Made by a program: the position numbers and the translations under genes | Part shown: positions 11,340 through 16,014 of the stretch, one piece after another | Layout: every line of letters begins with the position of its first letter | How positions within the stretch are numbered: the first letter of the stretch is position 1 | Assembly: GCF_017352155.2 (NCBI RefSeq) | Contig: NZ_CP071462.1 | Location: 248,001 to 312,000 of the forward strand | Source of the DNA: Haloterrigena alkaliphila | Lineage (GTDB): Archaea > Halobacteriota > Halobacteria > Halobacteriales > Natrialbaceae | Reading direction: 5' to 3' | DNA: 64,000 bases | Notes under the pieces: model-generated | The model's input: only the letters and a program-made list of their open reading frames with translations | The model's database searches: none | What the model was told of the DNA's origin: nothing

Positions 11340-12533
11340 ATGGAGACGACGGACGCATTCGCCGGTCTCGAGTGTCGCGACTGCGAGGCCACCTACGACG
11401 CGGCGGACGAATCCCACCGCTGTCCCGACTGCGGGGGGATCCTCGACCCGAGCTACGAGTACGACGCGATCGATCTGGATCGCGAGACCCTCGAGTCGCG
11501 GCCGTTCGGCTCGATGTGGCGCTACGAGGAACTGCTGCCGTTCACGCGCGAGTCGGCCGTGACGATGGACGAGGGGGCGACGCCGCTGGTCGACTGTCCG
11601 ACGCTGGCCGAGGAGTTCGGCGTCGAACGCGTGCTGATCAAGGACGAGGGCCGGAATCCGACGGGGACGTTCAAGGATCGCGGCCAGACCGTCGCCGTGA
11701 CGGCGGCGACGCAACACGGCGCGACCGACGTCGCGCTGGCCTCGGCGGGCAACGCCGGGCAGGCCGCGGCCGCCTACGCCGGCCGAGCGGGGCTGGACGC
11801 CCACGTCTACCTCCCCTCGCGCTCGGGCTTTACGAACAAGGCGATGGTCAACGTCCACGGCGGCGACATGAACGTCGTCGGCGGGCGCATCGACGACGCC
11901 GGCGCGGCCTACGAGGAGGCCCTCGACGAGCACGACGACTGGTACCCCCTCCAGACGTTCGTCACGCCTTACCGTCACGAGGGGAAGAAGACGATGCTCT
12001 ACGAAACCGTCGAACAACTCGACTGGGCGGTCCCCGACGCGATCTGTTACCCCACGGGCGGCGGCGTCGGCCTGATCGGGATGTACAAGGCCGCGACCGA
12101 ACTCCGCGAGTTGGGGCTGATCGACGACCTCCCCGGGCTGTACGCGGCCCAGGCGTCGGGCTGTGCCCCGATCGTCGAGGCCTACGAAGCGGGCCGCGAT
12201 GAACACGACCCCGTCGAACACCCCGACACCATCTGCGGCGGCCTCGAGATCCCGGATCCCGGCGCGAGCCCGTGGATCCTCGAGGCGATCCGCGAGACCG
12301 ACGGCGGTGCGGTCGCCACGGACGACCCGGATATCCTCGAGGCCGCGGTGCAGGTCGCCAAGCGCGAGGGCCTCGAGATGGTCCCGAGCGCCGCGGCGGC
12401 GGCCAGCGGCGCGTGGGAACTCGCCGAACGCGGCGCGTTCGACGGCGACGAGACGGTCGTGATCCTCAACACGGGATCGGGGAACAAGGAGGCCGACGTG
12501 CTTCGCAGTCACCTGATGAGTCAGGGCGTGTAG
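11340..12533 (+). CDS. thrC: Threonine synthase
   Basis: 397 residues. PLP-dependent enzyme converting O-phosphohomoserine to threonine. A zinc-ribbon-like N-terminus (Cys12, Cys15, Cys28, Cys31) precedes the fold-type II core. The PLP lysine is Lys112 in NPTGTFKDRG, and SAGNAGQAAAAYAG and YPTGGGVGLIGM form the cofactor phosphate-binding loops. The C-terminal NTGSGNKEADVL is diagnostic for thrC in archaea. It is monocistronic by spacing. A lactate- or cysteate-type paralogue is less likely given the full match. Confidence 0.92.
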   Translation: METTDAFAGLECRDCEATYDAADESHRCPDCGGILDPSYEYDAIDLDRETLESRPFGSMWRYEELLPFTRESAVTMDEGATPLVDCPTLAEEFGVERVLIKDEGRNPTGTFKDRGQTVAVTAATQHGATDVALASAGNAGQAAAAYAGRAGLDAHVYLPSRSGFTNKAMVNVHGGDMNVVGGRIDDAGAAYEEALDEHDDWYPLQTFVTPYRHEGKKTMLYETVEQLDWAVPDAICYPTGGGVGLIGMYKAATELRELGLIDDLPGLYAAQASGCAPIVEAYEAGRDEHDPVEHPDTICGGLEIPDPGASPWILEAIRETDGGAVATDDPDILEAAVQVAKREGLEMVPSAAAAASGAWELAERGAFDGDETVVILNTGSGNKEADVLRSHLMSQGV

Positions 12534-12623
12534 TCGTCGGTGGCACGGCGTTCGGACGGCAGAGCGATTGCGTAGCCATCGAAGAGTCCGTCGGTAAGCG
12601 CCCATCGGCCGATCGAGGACCCG

Positions 12624-13340
12624 TCAGTCGTCGTCGGCCTGATCGGTGTTGGCTCCCTCGAGCGAGCGCGTCTGCGCCTCGTCGACGACGTCGATCGAGA
12701 CGCCGGCGTCCATCCCGCGATTGCGGTTCGCGTCGCCGAATCCGGCGCTCAACACGCGAGTCAGGGCGTCCTCGACGTCTTCGTCCAGTTCGATGATGTT
12801 TTCCGATTCGACTTCGACGACGAACCCGGTGGTGATGTTGGGCGAGGTCGGCAGGAAGAGCACTTCGCGGCCGTCGTCGGTCGTCTTGCCGGTCTTGAAC
12901 GCCGTCATCCGCAACCCGCTCCAGGTCTCGATCTTGCAGGGTTTCTGCAGCGAGTCCTGCTCGCCGAAGGCCGTCTCGGCGGCCATCTTCGAGGCGTTGT
13001 AGACGACCCGCATCACGGGGACGCGGTTCGCGACGTTGTCGACGACCCGTTCGACGAGGCTGCCGACGGTGGTTCGCATGAGATAGCCCACGGAAAAGGT
13101 GAGGATGATGAAGACGGTCAGCGCGACGACGACGCGGAGGAACTGCGCGAGCTGCTTGCGCGTCTGCACGGCCTGGTCGCCGGTCCCCGGGACGAGCGGC
13201 ACGAGGGCGTCGGGCTGCAGAATGAGCTCGGGCGTCAGGCCGGCGAGGAGCCCGTAGAGCCAGTAGATGACGTAAAGGGTGACCAGAATCGGGCCGAGGA
13301 CGATCAGCCCACTCGCGAAATCCCGCTTCCACGAAGCCAT
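12624..13340 (-). CDS. DUF502 family membrane protein
   Basis: 238 residues from ATG 13340. Two N-terminal membrane helices (about 9-32 and 71-95) are followed by the conserved DUF502 block (VPVMRVVYNASKMAAETAF, then FLPTSPNITTGFVVEV) and an acidic tail. DUF502 proteins are widespread in bacteria, archaea and plants, and no biochemical role can be read from sequence. The open frame extends three codons upstream to a TTG, but ATG fits better. An IS1341-type element sits just upstream. Confidence 0.8.
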   Translation of the reverse strand: MASWKRDFASGLIVLGPILVTLYVIYWLYGLLAGLTPELILQPDALVPLVPGTGDQAVQTRKQLAQFLRVVVALTVFIILTFSVGYLMRTTVGSLVERVVDNVANRVPVMRVVYNASKMAAETAFGEQDSLQKPCKIETWSGLRMTAFKTGKTTDDGREVLFLPTSPNITTGFVVEVESENIIELDEDVEDALTRVLSAGFGDANRNRGMDAGVSIDVVDEAQTRSLEGANTDQADDD

Positions 13341-13390
13341 GTACTGCAACTCTCACTAGGGGCTAATGAGCCCTTCCCTTTAGCTGAGTT

Positions 13391-13454
13391 GAGGCGCTAA
13401 TCCCCCTTCCTCAGCGAGCGCCTTCGGCGCCAGCAGGGAGGGATACAGCGCCTC
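13391..13454 (+). repeat. Left-end imperfect palindrome of the TnpB element
   Basis: Outer arms GAGGCGCT (13391-13398) and AGCGCCTC (13447-13454) pair perfectly. Inside them ATCCC pairs with GGGAT, and the tip is GCGCC-TTC-GGCGC. IS200/IS605-type transposases recognise subterminal hairpins as single-stranded DNA, so this is the likely left recognition structure, here retained without its own tnpA. Confidence 0.6.
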
Positions 13455-13540
13455 TCGTGTTTCTTGGACTGTTCTATAGCAGGCCCAAAGGCCCACGGTA
13501 TCGATAGTTTTTACGTATAGCGTGCATTGTGTGCATTACT

Positions 13541-13663
13541 GTGAAACGGAAGACTATCACCATTCGGGAGGACCAAGATGAGTGGATTGAGGAGCAACAC
13601 CTCAACCTCTCGTCGTTCGTCCGTGACCAGCTCGACGAACTTATCGAGGAACGCGAGAACTGA
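13541..13663 (+). CDS. Tiny ribbon-helix-helix protein coupled to tnpB
   Basis: 40 residues from a GTG at 13541 (an in-frame GTG at 13529 is possible). It reads KRKTITIREDQDEWIEEQHL, then LSSFVRDQLDELIEE: one beta strand and two helices, the minimal ribbon-helix-helix DNA-binding fold of CopG/Arc-type dimers. Its TGA shares one base with the tnpB ATG at 13663, so translation is coupled. I infer a repressor or auxiliary factor of the element; there is no experimental basis. It is too short for most automatic gene calls. Confidence 0.65.
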   Translation: MKRKTITIREDQDEWIEEQHLNLSSFVRDQLDELIEEREN

Positions 13664-14907
13664 TGTACTACGCCTACAAGTATCGTCTCGAGCCGTCCGT
13701 CGCTCAACGCGAGGAGTTGGACCGCCACCGCGATATCTGTAGGCAACTGTACAATCACACTCGCTACCGCCTCAACGAGTATCGAGAGAACCACGGCGAA
13801 CTCCCGTCCATGACCACACTCCGGTCGGAGCTTCCCGACCTCAAGAAGTGGTGGAACGACCTCTCGGACGTGTACTCGAAGGTTCTCCAAACAGTCGTCG
13901 AACGGCTGTTCAATAACCTCAGTAGCCTTTCTGCACTCAAGCAGAACGGCTACGGCGTCGGCCAACTCAAGTGGAAACCACCGCGCGAGTTCCGCAGTTT
14001 CACGTACAACCAGTCTGGCTTCAAGCTCGACAAGAAGGGCGGTCAGACTGTGCTGTCACTTTCGAAACTCGCGGACATTCCGATCCGACTCCACCGAGAT
14101 ATCCCCGACGACGCCACACTCAAGCAGGTCACGCTCAAGAAGGAACCGACGGGCAAGTGGTTCGCCACCTTCGGCGTCGAAGTTAACCGAGAGCCACCGG
14201 AGAAGGCTGACCGACCGAAGAATGCCGTTGGAATCGACGTGGGTATTCTCAAGTACGCACACGACACTGACGGCCACGCTGTTGAATCGGTCGACCTCTC
14301 GGACGAACGGGACCGGCTCGAACGTGAGCGACGGAAACTCTCGCGCAAAGAGCACGGCTCGAACAACTACGAGCAACAACGCGACAGCGTTGCTGAACGC
14401 CACGCCGACCTGAAGCGGAAGCGCCGGGACTTCTTGCACAAACTCTCGGCGTACTACGCTCGGGAGTATGACCTCGTTGCGGTCGAAGACCTTGATGCGA
14501 AAGGCTTGGTCGAACTTGACGGCAACTCACGGAACCGTGCCGGAGCAGCGTGGGGAACATTCCTCCGAATGCTCGAGTACAAGTGTGAACGCGAAGGAAC
14601 GCACTTCGTCGCTGTAGATCCAGCAGGGACGACCAAAGAGTGTGCAGCCTGTGGCGTCTCGACCGACAAACCGATGTGGGTCCGCGAACACTCGTGTCCG
14701 TCGTGTGGATTCACGGCCGACAGGGACTGGAACGCAGCATGGAACATTCTTTCTCGCGGTATCAAGCAGTTAGGAGCGGGGCGCTCCGAATCAACGCCTG
14801 TGGAGACTGCGCTCCCTACGGGAGCCTCTTCGGTTCCTGCAAAGCGCGTCTTGGAATCAGGAAGCCTCACCCTCAAGGACCGAACGGCTGACGCCGTGAG
14901 CGAGTAG
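13663..14907 (+). CDS. tnpB: RNA-guided endonuclease TnpB (IS1341-type)
   Basis: 414 residues, intact. The RuvC-like catalytic triad is visible: Asp192 in GIDVGIL, Glu275 in VAVEDLDAKG, and the terminal acidic site in ADRDWNAAWNIL (Asp353/Asp355). The zinc ribbon lies between (CAACG ... CPSCG). TnpB proteins cut DNA guided by an omega RNA transcribed from the 3' end of their own gene and maintain the element at its donor site. Nothing suggests a nuclease-dead repressor, since all acidic residues remain. The protein differs greatly from the second TnpB at 61158. Confidence 0.93.
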   Translation: MYYAYKYRLEPSVAQREELDRHRDICRQLYNHTRYRLNEYRENHGELPSMTTLRSELPDLKKWWNDLSDVYSKVLQTVVERLFNNLSSLSALKQNGYGVGQLKWKPPREFRSFTYNQSGFKLDKKGGQTVLSLSKLADIPIRLHRDIPDDATLKQVTLKKEPTGKWFATFGVEVNREPPEKADRPKNAVGIDVGILKYAHDTDGHAVESVDLSDERDRLERERRKLSRKEHGSNNYEQQRDSVAERHADLKRKRRDFLHKLSAYYAREYDLVAVEDLDAKGLVELDGNSRNRAGAAWGTFLRMLEYKCEREGTHFVAVDPAGTTKECAACGVSTDKPMWVREHSCPSCGFTADRDWNAAWNILSRGIKQLGAGRSESTPVETALPTGASSVPAKRVLESGSLTLKDRTADAVSE

Positions 14908-14918
14908 GGTGGGGTAGT
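14861..14918 (+). ncRNA. Predicted 3' scaffold of the TnpB omega RNA (locus 1)
   Basis: The last part of tnpB plus the right end contains AAGCCTC-A-CCCTCAA, a 5-bp stem with a 4-base loop (ACGGC-TGAC-GCCGT, 14884-14897), GTGAGCGA and GTAGGGTGGGGTAGT. The second TnpB locus has the same order with a compensated stem. ACCCT can pair with AGGGT as a pseudoknot. The guide would begin at about 14919 and be antisense to the end of the proline dehydrogenase gene. The 5' limit is unknown. Confidence 0.5.
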
Positions 14919-15755
14919 TCACCGATCGAGAATGGCCTGCAGGGCGAATTTGACGTTTTCGGTCCGTTCGGTCATGCGCCGGTAGAAGTACGATTTCCAG
15001 CGGTCGCCGAAGGGCACGTACTGGAAGACCGGATACTCCCGAGCGAGGTCGTACTGGGCGTCCTCGCGAACGCCCATGAGCATCTGGACCTCGAACTCGG
15101 TCCCGTGTTCCTCGTGACAGTCGATCGCGTGCTCGATCATCGCGGGGTCGTGGCTTCCGACGGCGATCCCGCCGTCGTAGTGCTCGAAGGCGTACTCGAG
15201 CAGCGCCTCGTACTCCCGGTTGACTCGCTCGGAGTCGGTGTAGGCGATCTCGGCCGGTTCGTCGTAGGCTCCCTTGACGAACCGAACCTTCCCGGGGACG
15301 TCCGCGAGCCGTTCGACGTCCGCGCGAGTGCGCCTGAGGTTCGCCTGTACGCAGACGCCCACACCCCCATCGTGTTCCCGGGCGAGATCCACGAACGCGT
15401 CGAGGGTCGCGTCCGTCGTCGTGTGATCTTCCATGTCGATCCAGACGAAAACCCCGCGGTCGGCGGCAGCGTCGACGACGCCCGCGAGCTCCTCGCGAAA
15501 GACGTCTTCGCCCAGATCGAGCCCGAGTTGCGAGGGTTTGACCGAGAGACAGGCCTCGAGATCCGAGTTGCCGATGTCCGCGGCCAGCACCCGGTAGGTC
15601 GCGGCATCAGACCGCACGGGCGAGCGGTCGTCGTAGTGCTCGCCGAGCAGGTTGACGATTCCGGCGACGGTTCGCCCGTTGAGTCGGCGGACGTGCTCGA
15701 GGGCCTCCGCCGGGGACTCCCCAGCGACGAATCGGTTCGCGATCGGCGGAATCAT
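14919..15755 (-). CDS. Proline dehydrogenase (PutA-type barrel)
   Basis: 278 residues, a monofunctional flavin-dependent proline dehydrogenase that oxidises proline to pyrroline-5-carboxylate. The signature helix YFYRRMTERTEN near the C-terminus carries the substrate-binding arginines, and VFVWIDMEDHTTTD and VRFVKGAYDEPAE are conserved barrel strands. Its stop codon abuts the right end of the TnpB element, so the coding sequence is not interrupted. No P5C dehydrogenase is adjacent. Confidence 0.88.
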   Translation of the reverse strand: MIPPIANRFVAGESPAEALEHVRRLNGRTVAGIVNLLGEHYDDRSPVRSDAATYRVLAADIGNSDLEACLSVKPSQLGLDLGEDVFREELAGVVDAAADRGVFVWIDMEDHTTTDATLDAFVDLAREHDGGVGVCVQANLRRTRADVERLADVPGKVRFVKGAYDEPAEIAYTDSERVNREYEALLEYAFEHYDGGIAVGSHDPAMIEHAIDCHEEHGTEFEVQMLMGVREDAQYDLAREYPVFQYVPFGDRWKSYFYRRMTERTENVKFALQAILDR

Positions 15756-15975
15756 ATCCGCGTGGTTTGCCGGCCAGTCCTAAGGGAGTTCGTTTGTCTC
15801 TCGAGCCCAGTTGGTCATCGTTCGTACCGGTTCGGTAGAGTACTCGTCGTTCGCATCGGCCCGGTACAGCACTCGTTCGTAGCAGTCCGGTACCCGTCTC
15901 GCGGGCCCGCTCCGCCTCGTATCCGTCTCCAAAAACCGATATCGTGGATCCGACGACGGGGTTCGGACGCGATGA

Positions 15976-16014
15976 TGTATTCAGCATCTGTATTCAATAT
16001 CTGTATACACTCTT
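15976..16014 (+). promoter_or_regulatory. Triple 13-bp direct repeat upstream of the class III aminotransferase
   Basis: Within the 309-base spacer 15756-16064, three head-to-tail units read TGTATTCAGCATC, TGTATTCAATATC and TGTATACACTCTT. They end about 18 bases before a TATA-like GTTATTA (16033-16039), which itself is about 29 bases before the ATG at 16065, as expected for a leaderless archaeal transcript. The position upstream of TATA suits an activator, or a multimeric regulator. TGTATAC recurs in other promoters of this region. Nothing else is recognised in the spacer. Confidence 0.5.

What the first reader, a model, noticed from the sequence alone, without database searches (positions are those of the whole stretch)
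13541..13665. 40-residue ribbon-helix-helix gene translationally coupled to tnpB
The GTG-started frame codes for a minimal RHH fold and its TGA shares a base with the tnpB ATG. It is too short for standard gene finding, so such partners may be widely overlooked. A DNA-binding partner could repress tnpB, bind the element end, or help in target choice.
Basis: partly seen in the sequence, partly recalled or inferred. Interest (0 to 1): 0.55.

Follow-up and report, generated by a model that had tools for sequence, protein, structure and literature searches.

The report
Small DNA-binding regulator paired with TnpB
A 40-residue protein gene sits directly in front of an RNA-guided nuclease gene in a salt-loving archaeon's mobile element; it is kept by selection in many relatives and most likely turns its own element down, a layer of control for TnpB that annotation often misses.

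Summary
A 40-codon GTG-started frame (13541-13663) encodes a conserved ribbon-helix-helix (RHH) protein whose TGA overlaps the tnpB ATG by one base. Both genes lie in one 1.54-kb IS1341-type element (about 13385-14922), absent from that site in the five other genomes of the genus held. RHH precedes tnpB in 35 of 80 named relatives and 47 of 100 close tnpB genes, under purifying selection (pN/pS 0.15 over 17 independent pairs). In the same tnpB lineage the slot is otherwise mostly held by tnpA or a DUF2080-like gene; partner type changes 16 times on a TnpB tree. RHH relatives also lie beside very different TnpBs (about 23-29% identity), once in divergent orientation, and head PemK operons. Repeats between a TATA-like box and the start codon differ with the RHH subfamily and track its presumed DNA-contact strand (partial Mantel r 0.64); a control stretch does not. 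Best reading: an autorepressor of the RHH-tnpB operon, related to antitoxin DNA-binding heads. Binding of element ends or target choice found no support. Nothing was measured at the bench; key TnpB papers were not held.

The parts
13385..14922 (+). whole IS200/IS605 (IS1341-type) element, about 1538 bp, boundaries good to 1-2 bases
   Evidence: flanks abut without it in 5 of 5 other genomes of the genus; junction read in two of them
13391..13454 (+). left-end structured DNA (near-terminal imperfect palindrome)
   Evidence: stem in the fold of 13385-13460, -40.5 kcal/mol by RNA parameters; similar left-end sequence in relatives with other partners
13479..13497 (+). GCAGGCCCAAAGGCCCACG (consensus GGCCCACAGGCCCACG), a conserved block seen before RHH, TnpA and DUF2080-like genes; role unknown
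13508..13519 (+). TATA-like stretch TTTTTACGTATA, centred about 27 bases before the GTG (inference)
   Evidence: similar stretches in relatives
13522..13536 (+). operator-like repeat GTGCATTGTGTGCAT
13541..13663 (+). 40-aa ribbon-helix-helix protein gene (GTG start, TGA stop)
13663..14907 (+). tnpB, 414 aa, RNA-guided endonuclease family; GIDVG, VEDL and DRDWNAA present (their catalytic meaning is recalled)
   Evidence: NF040570 E 5.6e-84; Pfam PF07282, PF01385, PF12323; motif positions
14850..14922 (+). right end with stem-loop; expected 3' part of the guide RNA (inference; no Rfam hit)
   Evidence: fold -27.9 kcal/mol; Rfam none at E<=1 for 12500-16000

Best explanation
The gene encodes a stand-alone RHH DNA-binding domain, related to the DNA-binding head of type II antitoxins but without a toxin-binding tail. 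As dimers, two or three side by side, it binds short palindromic repeats about 9-10 bp apart between the TATA-like box and its own start codon, and so represses the RHH-tnpB transcript. Because the RHH gene comes first and its stop overlaps or abuts the tnpB start, both proteins come from one message and TnpB is under negative feedback: low where the element is resident, briefly high when it enters a cell without repressor. SHOWN: the gene, selection on it, its linkage to tnpB inside one element, repeats that differ by RHH subfamily and track its strand residues. INFERRED: dimers, binding, repression, a promoter with little or no leader, the feedback logic, translational coupling.
For: Real protein: no stops in 34 distinct sequences, pooled pN/pS 0.22, 17 independent pairs 0.153, 66% of differences at codon position 3; shifted frames 1.6 and 3.6. 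RHH-like architecture. Linkage: 35 of 80 named loci, 34 intact, gap -4..+4 nt in all 34; 47 of 100 close tnpB genes. Same element: empty site in 5 of 5 other genus genomes. Repeats sort with the RHH strand type: KRKT mostly GTGCAT-N3-GTGCAT, RRKN repeated TGCGCAT, KRTT mostly TGCATA...TATGCA, AKRKN/xTRKN ACACAA-N-GTGTGT-like. Operator distance tracks strand residues after removal of synonymous and control-stretch distance (partial r 0.64, p 0.0005; 0.49 with helix residues also removed), the control stretch does not (0.03, p 0.30). Triple-palindrome score over 66 stretches 6.45 against 5.90 +- 0.10, above all 200 shuffles. A 41-aa relative is divergent from a different TnpB across 49-55 bp (5 loci with intact TnpB), so a shared promoter, not frame overlap, is the common link. 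The closest relatives away from tnpB head PemK operons (7 loci; PF02452 for the one pair tested); antitoxins of that kind usually repress their own operon (general knowledge). The other small partner, DUF2080-like, belongs near a family reported as antitoxin (PMC10440598, one passage).
Against: No binding, expression or knock-out data. Repeats and RHH gene are neighbours, so linkage and ancestry explain part of the correlation, and Mantel permutations do not remove ancestry; helix residues also correlate with the operator on their own (partial r 0.31, p 0.0005). Block conservation before the start is only modestly above 4-fold sites in the largest group (0.83 and 0.70 against 0.66), and in the KRTT group the second block (0.65) is below them (0.72). 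The palindrome score of the largest group alone is 6.14, not tested by itself. Curated RHH profiles and PDB/Foldseek searches give no significant match. RHH relatives without any TnpB exist (L023, L167-L169, L186, L187), and a sister tnpB clade mostly has no partner.
Confidence: 0.65

Rival explanations
1. Antitoxin-like partner: besides (or instead of) DNA, the RHH protein binds TnpB or its guide RNA and holds the nuclease in check.
For: Gene order and tight junction, and RHH relatives heading PemK operons, resemble a toxin-antitoxin pair; the alternative small partner is DUF2080-like, a family reported as antitoxin.
Against: At 39-41 aa there is no tail beyond the second helix, whereas the RHH before PemK has about 40 more residues; RHH relatives go with TnpBs only about 23-29% identical.
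Confidence: 0.12
2. Transposition accessory that took TnpA's place: it binds the element end and helps mobilisation in trans or target choice.
For: It occupies the tnpA slot in the same tnpB lineage.
Against: An RHH domain is no transposase (general knowledge); the repeat sits at the promoter, once in the element and not at the right end; the left-end sequence is shared by RHH, TnpA and DUF2080-like types, so ends do not follow the partner.
Confidence: 0.08
3. Only a leader frame: its translation merely feeds ribosomes to tnpB, and the peptide is irrelevant.
For: Junction of -4 to +4 nt at tnpB.
Against: Purifying selection on amino acids; relatives in divergent orientation.
Confidence: 0.03
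4. Host-directed regulator: the RHH protein mainly acts on host or rival-element genes and travels with the element.
For: Not excluded: only the 64-kb window was scanned for the repeat.
Against: In the window the repeat is found once, at its own promoter, and operators covary with the RHH that they precede.
Confidence: 0.05

Closest known systems
RHH autorepressors CopG, Arc, ParG (recalled)
   Same: small strand-helix-helix dimeric proteins that bind short repeats at their own promoter
   Different: those serve plasmid copy control, a phage switch or partition; this one is 39-41 aa and heads a tnpB operon inside an insertion sequence
RHH antitoxins of type II systems (CcdA; here the RHH of RHH-PemK operons, L154, L161-L166)
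   Same: closest relatives away from tnpB found here: two of them 58% and 50% identical to the window protein over 36 aa; first gene of an overlapping pair
   Different: about 40 residues of C-terminal tail and a PemK-type second gene; the TnpB partner has neither
DUF2080 (PF09853, 'putative transposon-encoded protein'; SpnP2 antitoxin in PMC10440598)
   Same: a DUF2080-like small gene (15.6 and 20.6 bits, cut-off 21.5) holds the same slot before tnpB in the same lineage
   Different: unrelated sequence, probably AbrB-like (inference)
IS200/IS605 elements with tnpA-tnpB (e.g. ISH12, PMC3119063 passage)
   Same: in this lineage similar left end, same tnpB lineage and the same tight junction with tnpB
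   Different: tnpA replaced by RHH; no transposase in the element (IS1341-type)
TldR, TnpB-like RNA-guided repressors (recalled; paper not held)
   Same: a TnpB-element gene used for transcriptional control
   Different: there a nuclease-dead TnpB is the regulator; here TnpB keeps its motif positions and a separate protein is the presumed regulator

Membership tests
Ribbon-helix-helix (MetJ/Arc/CopG-type) proteins | one N-terminal strand followed by two helices | tested here: met
   helices 10-18 and 23-39 after an extended stretch 1-9, pLDDT 83.3, pTM 0.43; no strand assigned in the monomer, as expected if the ribbon forms only in the dimer
Ribbon-helix-helix (MetJ/Arc/CopG-type) proteins | match to a curated RHH family or solved RHH structure | tested here: inconclusive
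   window protein: no RHH family in Pfam or NCBIfam; 16 of 30 homologues match CcdA at E<=1, best 0.0017, the one shown 19.0 bits against a cut-off of 22.4; PDB profile search and Foldseek: none
Ribbon-helix-helix (MetJ/Arc/CopG-type) proteins | dimer that binds DNA through the strand | not testable with these tools
   only indirect: repeats track strand residues
IS200/IS605, IS1341-type element | tnpB of the guided-endonuclease family, no tnpA | tested here: met
   NF040570 5.6e-84; no TnpA-like match in the element, the genome's two lie elsewhere
IS200/IS605, IS1341-type element | insertion without target duplication, near-terminal palindromes | tested here: met
   empty site TTTAGC-GGTCGAG against filled TTTAGC|TGAG...TTCAC|CGATCGAG, no duplication seen; stems at both ends
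Type II toxin-antitoxin system | second gene is a toxin neutralised by the first | not testable with these tools
   second gene is TnpB; toxicity and neutralisation unknown; no tail beyond the second helix on the RHH

The most novel reading that the evidence does not exclude
Archaeal TnpB elements are organised like toxin-antitoxin operons: the slot of the transposase has been taken over, again and again, by exchangeable antitoxin-type DNA-binding heads (RHH, DUF2080-like), each brought in with its own operator, so that the nuclease is a guarded, addiction-like cargo kept low in resident cells and released on entry into a naive cell.
Probability: 0.3. Interest if true: 0.8.

Novelty: new variant of a known kind. 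Interest (0 to 1): 0.6.

Why it matters
How TnpB is kept harmless in its host, and how elements without a transposase persist, is open as far as I know. A co-encoded repressor exchanged as a cassette would give TnpB a dedicated transcriptional control, suggest how tnpA-less elements limit nuclease levels, and supply a minimal natural switch with matched operators. It also shows that genes of about 40 codons beside tnpB are often missing from annotation. The test is cheap: one short peptide, one 40-bp DNA.

Tried and rejected
Pfam and NCBIfam scans of the window's own protein gave no RHH family. PDB profile search, Foldseek and VIA-align gave nothing for the 40-aa model. Rfam gave no guide-RNA family at 12500-16000. 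Phage records: no match. A position-by-position identity count anchored on the start codon was confounded by offsets of 1-3 bases and replaced by aligned blocks, which show only modest extra constraint. The idea that RHH always accompanies this TnpB was rejected: TnpA and DUF2080-like genes together fill the slot about as often, and a sister clade mostly has none. My first reading that 41-aa RHHs are 'orphans' was wrong: 5 of the 6 loci then examined have an intact TnpB in divergent orientation, the sixth (L158) a broken one; L151 and L157 were not examined there.

Literature: (open-licence PMC only). In the papers whose passages I read I saw no RHH or other small regulator described before tnpB. 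One search was mis-set (min_terms 1) and useless. The main TnpB papers (classification, TldR, guide-RNA transposition) and the sotRNA paper were not held, so absence from print is not shown.

Rows dropped or capped: L111 (in-frame stop) left out, 30-derived counts, 56-58 and 82; six loci with short TnpB left out of the tree; L019 skipped because its core missed the pattern; one search kept the best 80 of 135 relatives; the listings are cut; I entered only tnpB rows that begin within the first 3 query residues and have at least 65% identity. Partner types were set by short motifs or by eye. L220 was cut short by a contig end (389 bases).

Full report
What is there. The frame 13541-13663 reads MKRKTITIREDQDEWIEEQHLNLSSFVRDQLDELIEEREN (GTG start) and its TGA shares base 13663 with the ATG of a 414-aa tnpB. 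The tnpB product matches NF040570 guided_TnpB at E 5.6e-84 and has GIDVG, VEDL and DRDWNAA at 190, 274 and 353 (their catalytic meaning is recalled). The window is G000:C1:248001-312000. A genome of the same genus (G005) has a contig of 698495 bases with the RHH at 183721, as has Haloterrigena turkmenica plasmid pHTUR01, so the source is probably a Haloterrigena.

One mobile unit. All five other genomes of the genus held have the two flanking genes without the insert; the flanks abut at one base, which places the element at about 13385-14922. Two empty sites were read: TTTAGC then GGTCGAG, against TTTAGC|TGAGTTGAGG...GTAGTTCAC|CGATCGAG in the window, with no target duplication visible. Both genes therefore lie in one insert.

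Conservation. The 40-aa query gives 30 places with E below 1e-4 in 61 genomes, own one included; 18 of the 21 loci L003-L023 fetched there have a tnpB start within 4 nt of the RHH stop (L019 broken frame, L020 and L023 no TnpB behind). With a profile of 30 sequences (A1) 110 of 292 genomes of the class match at E<=0.001, in 46 of 77 genera. In 80 named loci fetched by TnpB alone (the best 80 of 135), the gene directly before tnpB, set by short motifs, is RHH in 35 (34 intact, L111 with an in-frame stop), TnpA in 38, DUF2080-like in 5, neither in 2 (L079, L109). The gap from RHH stop to tnpB start is -4 to +4 nt in all 34 intact ones, -1 in 11 and +3 in 11; the start codon is GTG in 29 and ATG in 5. 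Of 30 loci fetched by the RHH profile (L120-L149, several the same places as before) 28 have the tnpB start within 4 nt; L129 is truncated, L147 has none. Counted from the tnpB side, 47 of 100 close tnpB genes from 116 searched genomes have RHH in front. I fetched 20 of the 53 others: by eye 15 have a DUF2080-like gene, 2 TnpA, 3 none recognised (L222, L223, L232). Of 20 tnpB genes of a sister clade (50-59% identity) 2 have TnpA and 18 nothing recognisable.

Selection. Over 34 distinct sequences pooled pN/pS is 0.22; shifted frames give 1.6 and 3.6; over 17 independent pairs it is 0.153, with 139 of 219 changes synonymous where sites alone would give about 21%. Sixteen positions are invariant in A1.

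Fold and kin. The AlphaFold2 monomer has helices 10-18 and 23-39 (pLDDT 83.3, pTM 0.43), as an RHH protein should. Curated families match only weakly: CcdA for 16 of 30 homologues at E<=1, best 0.0017; nothing in the PDB by profile or Foldseek. The nearest relatives away from tnpB are 78-80-aa RHH proteins followed, with 1-4 nt overlap, by a PemK-like gene in 7 loci (L154, L161-L166); PF02452 E 2.2e-24 for the one pair tested. Other weak RHH matches have no TnpB at all (L023, L167-L169, L186, L187).

Other TnpBs. A 41-aa RHH subfamily lies divergently from a different TnpB: of 6 loci examined, 5 have an intact 410-413-aa TnpB starting 49-55 bp away on the other strand and one a broken copy; NF040570 is met by the three tested. 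L151 and L157, of the same subfamily, were not examined that way; L151 has a TnpB-like fragment further off. Apart from L185, these TnpBs are about 23-29% identical to each other or to the window's over stretches above 200 residues. The association thus recurs with different TnpBs and in two orientations.

Exchange of partners. On a quick TnpB tree of 78 rows (74 of the 80 loci, the window, L033, L034, L185; 41 of 75 inner branches open) the partner label needs 16 changes, fewer than in any of 200 shuffles (mean 32) but well above the least possible, 4; strongly supported branches alone force at least 3 changes for TnpA and 6 for RHH. The types share a similar left end up to a GGCCCACAGGCCCACG block; behind it each has its own promoter stretch: variants of an inverted repeat such as ATTGGGGTA...TACGAACCCAAT before many tnpA genes, ACACATT...AATGTGT before two near-identical DUF2080-like genes (L116, L117), and the RHH repeats (read by eye). 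In the window's own genome the 70% identical tnpB (L033) carries a DUF2080-like gene.

Operator. In 66 distinct upstream stretches the repeats sort with the RHH strand type. Distance between operators correlates with strand differences (r 0.67); after removing synonymous distance and the distance of a control stretch (-110..-50) partial r is 0.64, and 0.49 with helix residues also removed; the control stretch shows 0.03 (p 0.30). Against this: helix residues also correlate (partial r 0.31), linkage and ancestry are not fully removed, block conservation is only modestly above 4-fold sites in the largest group and below them for one block in the KRTT group. The palindrome score is above all 200 shuffles over all stretches. 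In the window the motif is unique at up to one mismatch and lies at the promoter.

Mechanism. I take the protein as an autorepressor of the RHH-tnpB message (0.65). Shown: gene, selection, linkage, subfamily-specific repeats. Inferred: binding, repression, feedback, coupling. Antitoxin-like contact with TnpB (0.12) and a role in transposition (0.08) remain as rivals.

Literature seen, passages only: PMC8303175 and PMC12558985 (RNAs from IS1341/IS605 elements of archaea), PMC3119063 (IS605 elements of haloarchaea; many tnpB without tnpA), PMC10440598 (DUF2080 among antitoxins), PMC8987985 (RHH regulators suggested to stem from antitoxins), PMC12737573, PMC13092281. None of the passages describes a small regulator before tnpB; key TnpB papers were not held.

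Noticed in passing
L150:257-1498:- with 1548-1673:+ (also L152, L155, L156, L159): A 41-aa RHH gene divergent from a different TnpB across 49-55 bp, with a conserved stem-loop (CCCGCCCTAAAGGGCGGG and variants) behind the RHH gene.
   Followed up: partly
L154, L161-L166: RHH of 78-80 aa overlapping a PemK/MazF-like gene: haloarchaeal toxin-antitoxin-like pairs whose first gene is the closest relative of the finding away from tnpB.
   Followed up: partly
window 13479-13497; upstream of the partner gene in L040-L119: The GGCCCACAGGCCCACG block is the best-conserved 12-column stretch upstream of RHH in each of four groups (0.75-0.94) and is also seen before TnpA and DUF2080-like genes; role unknown.
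   Followed up: no
TnpA-type loci among L049-L104, about 40 bp before tnpA: Many tnpA-tnpB elements of this lineage carry variants of an inverted repeat (ATTGGGGTA...TACGAACCCAAT) over the tnpA promoter region, which suggests regulation there too.
   Followed up: no
   Followed up: partly
L074: Typical haloarchaeal RHH-tnpB element on a contig labelled as a Syntrophomonadaceae MAG: probably a misbinned contig.
   Followed up: no
L109: Only the last 10 or so residues of the RHH frame (SLDELIEERE) remain before tnpB, joined to other sequence: a remnant.
   Followed up: no
G000:C1:136665-137030 and G000:C2:228704-228961: The genome's two TnpA-like genes are only 26-36% identical to a TnpA of this tnpB lineage; whether they can mobilise the element in trans is open.
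   Followed up: no
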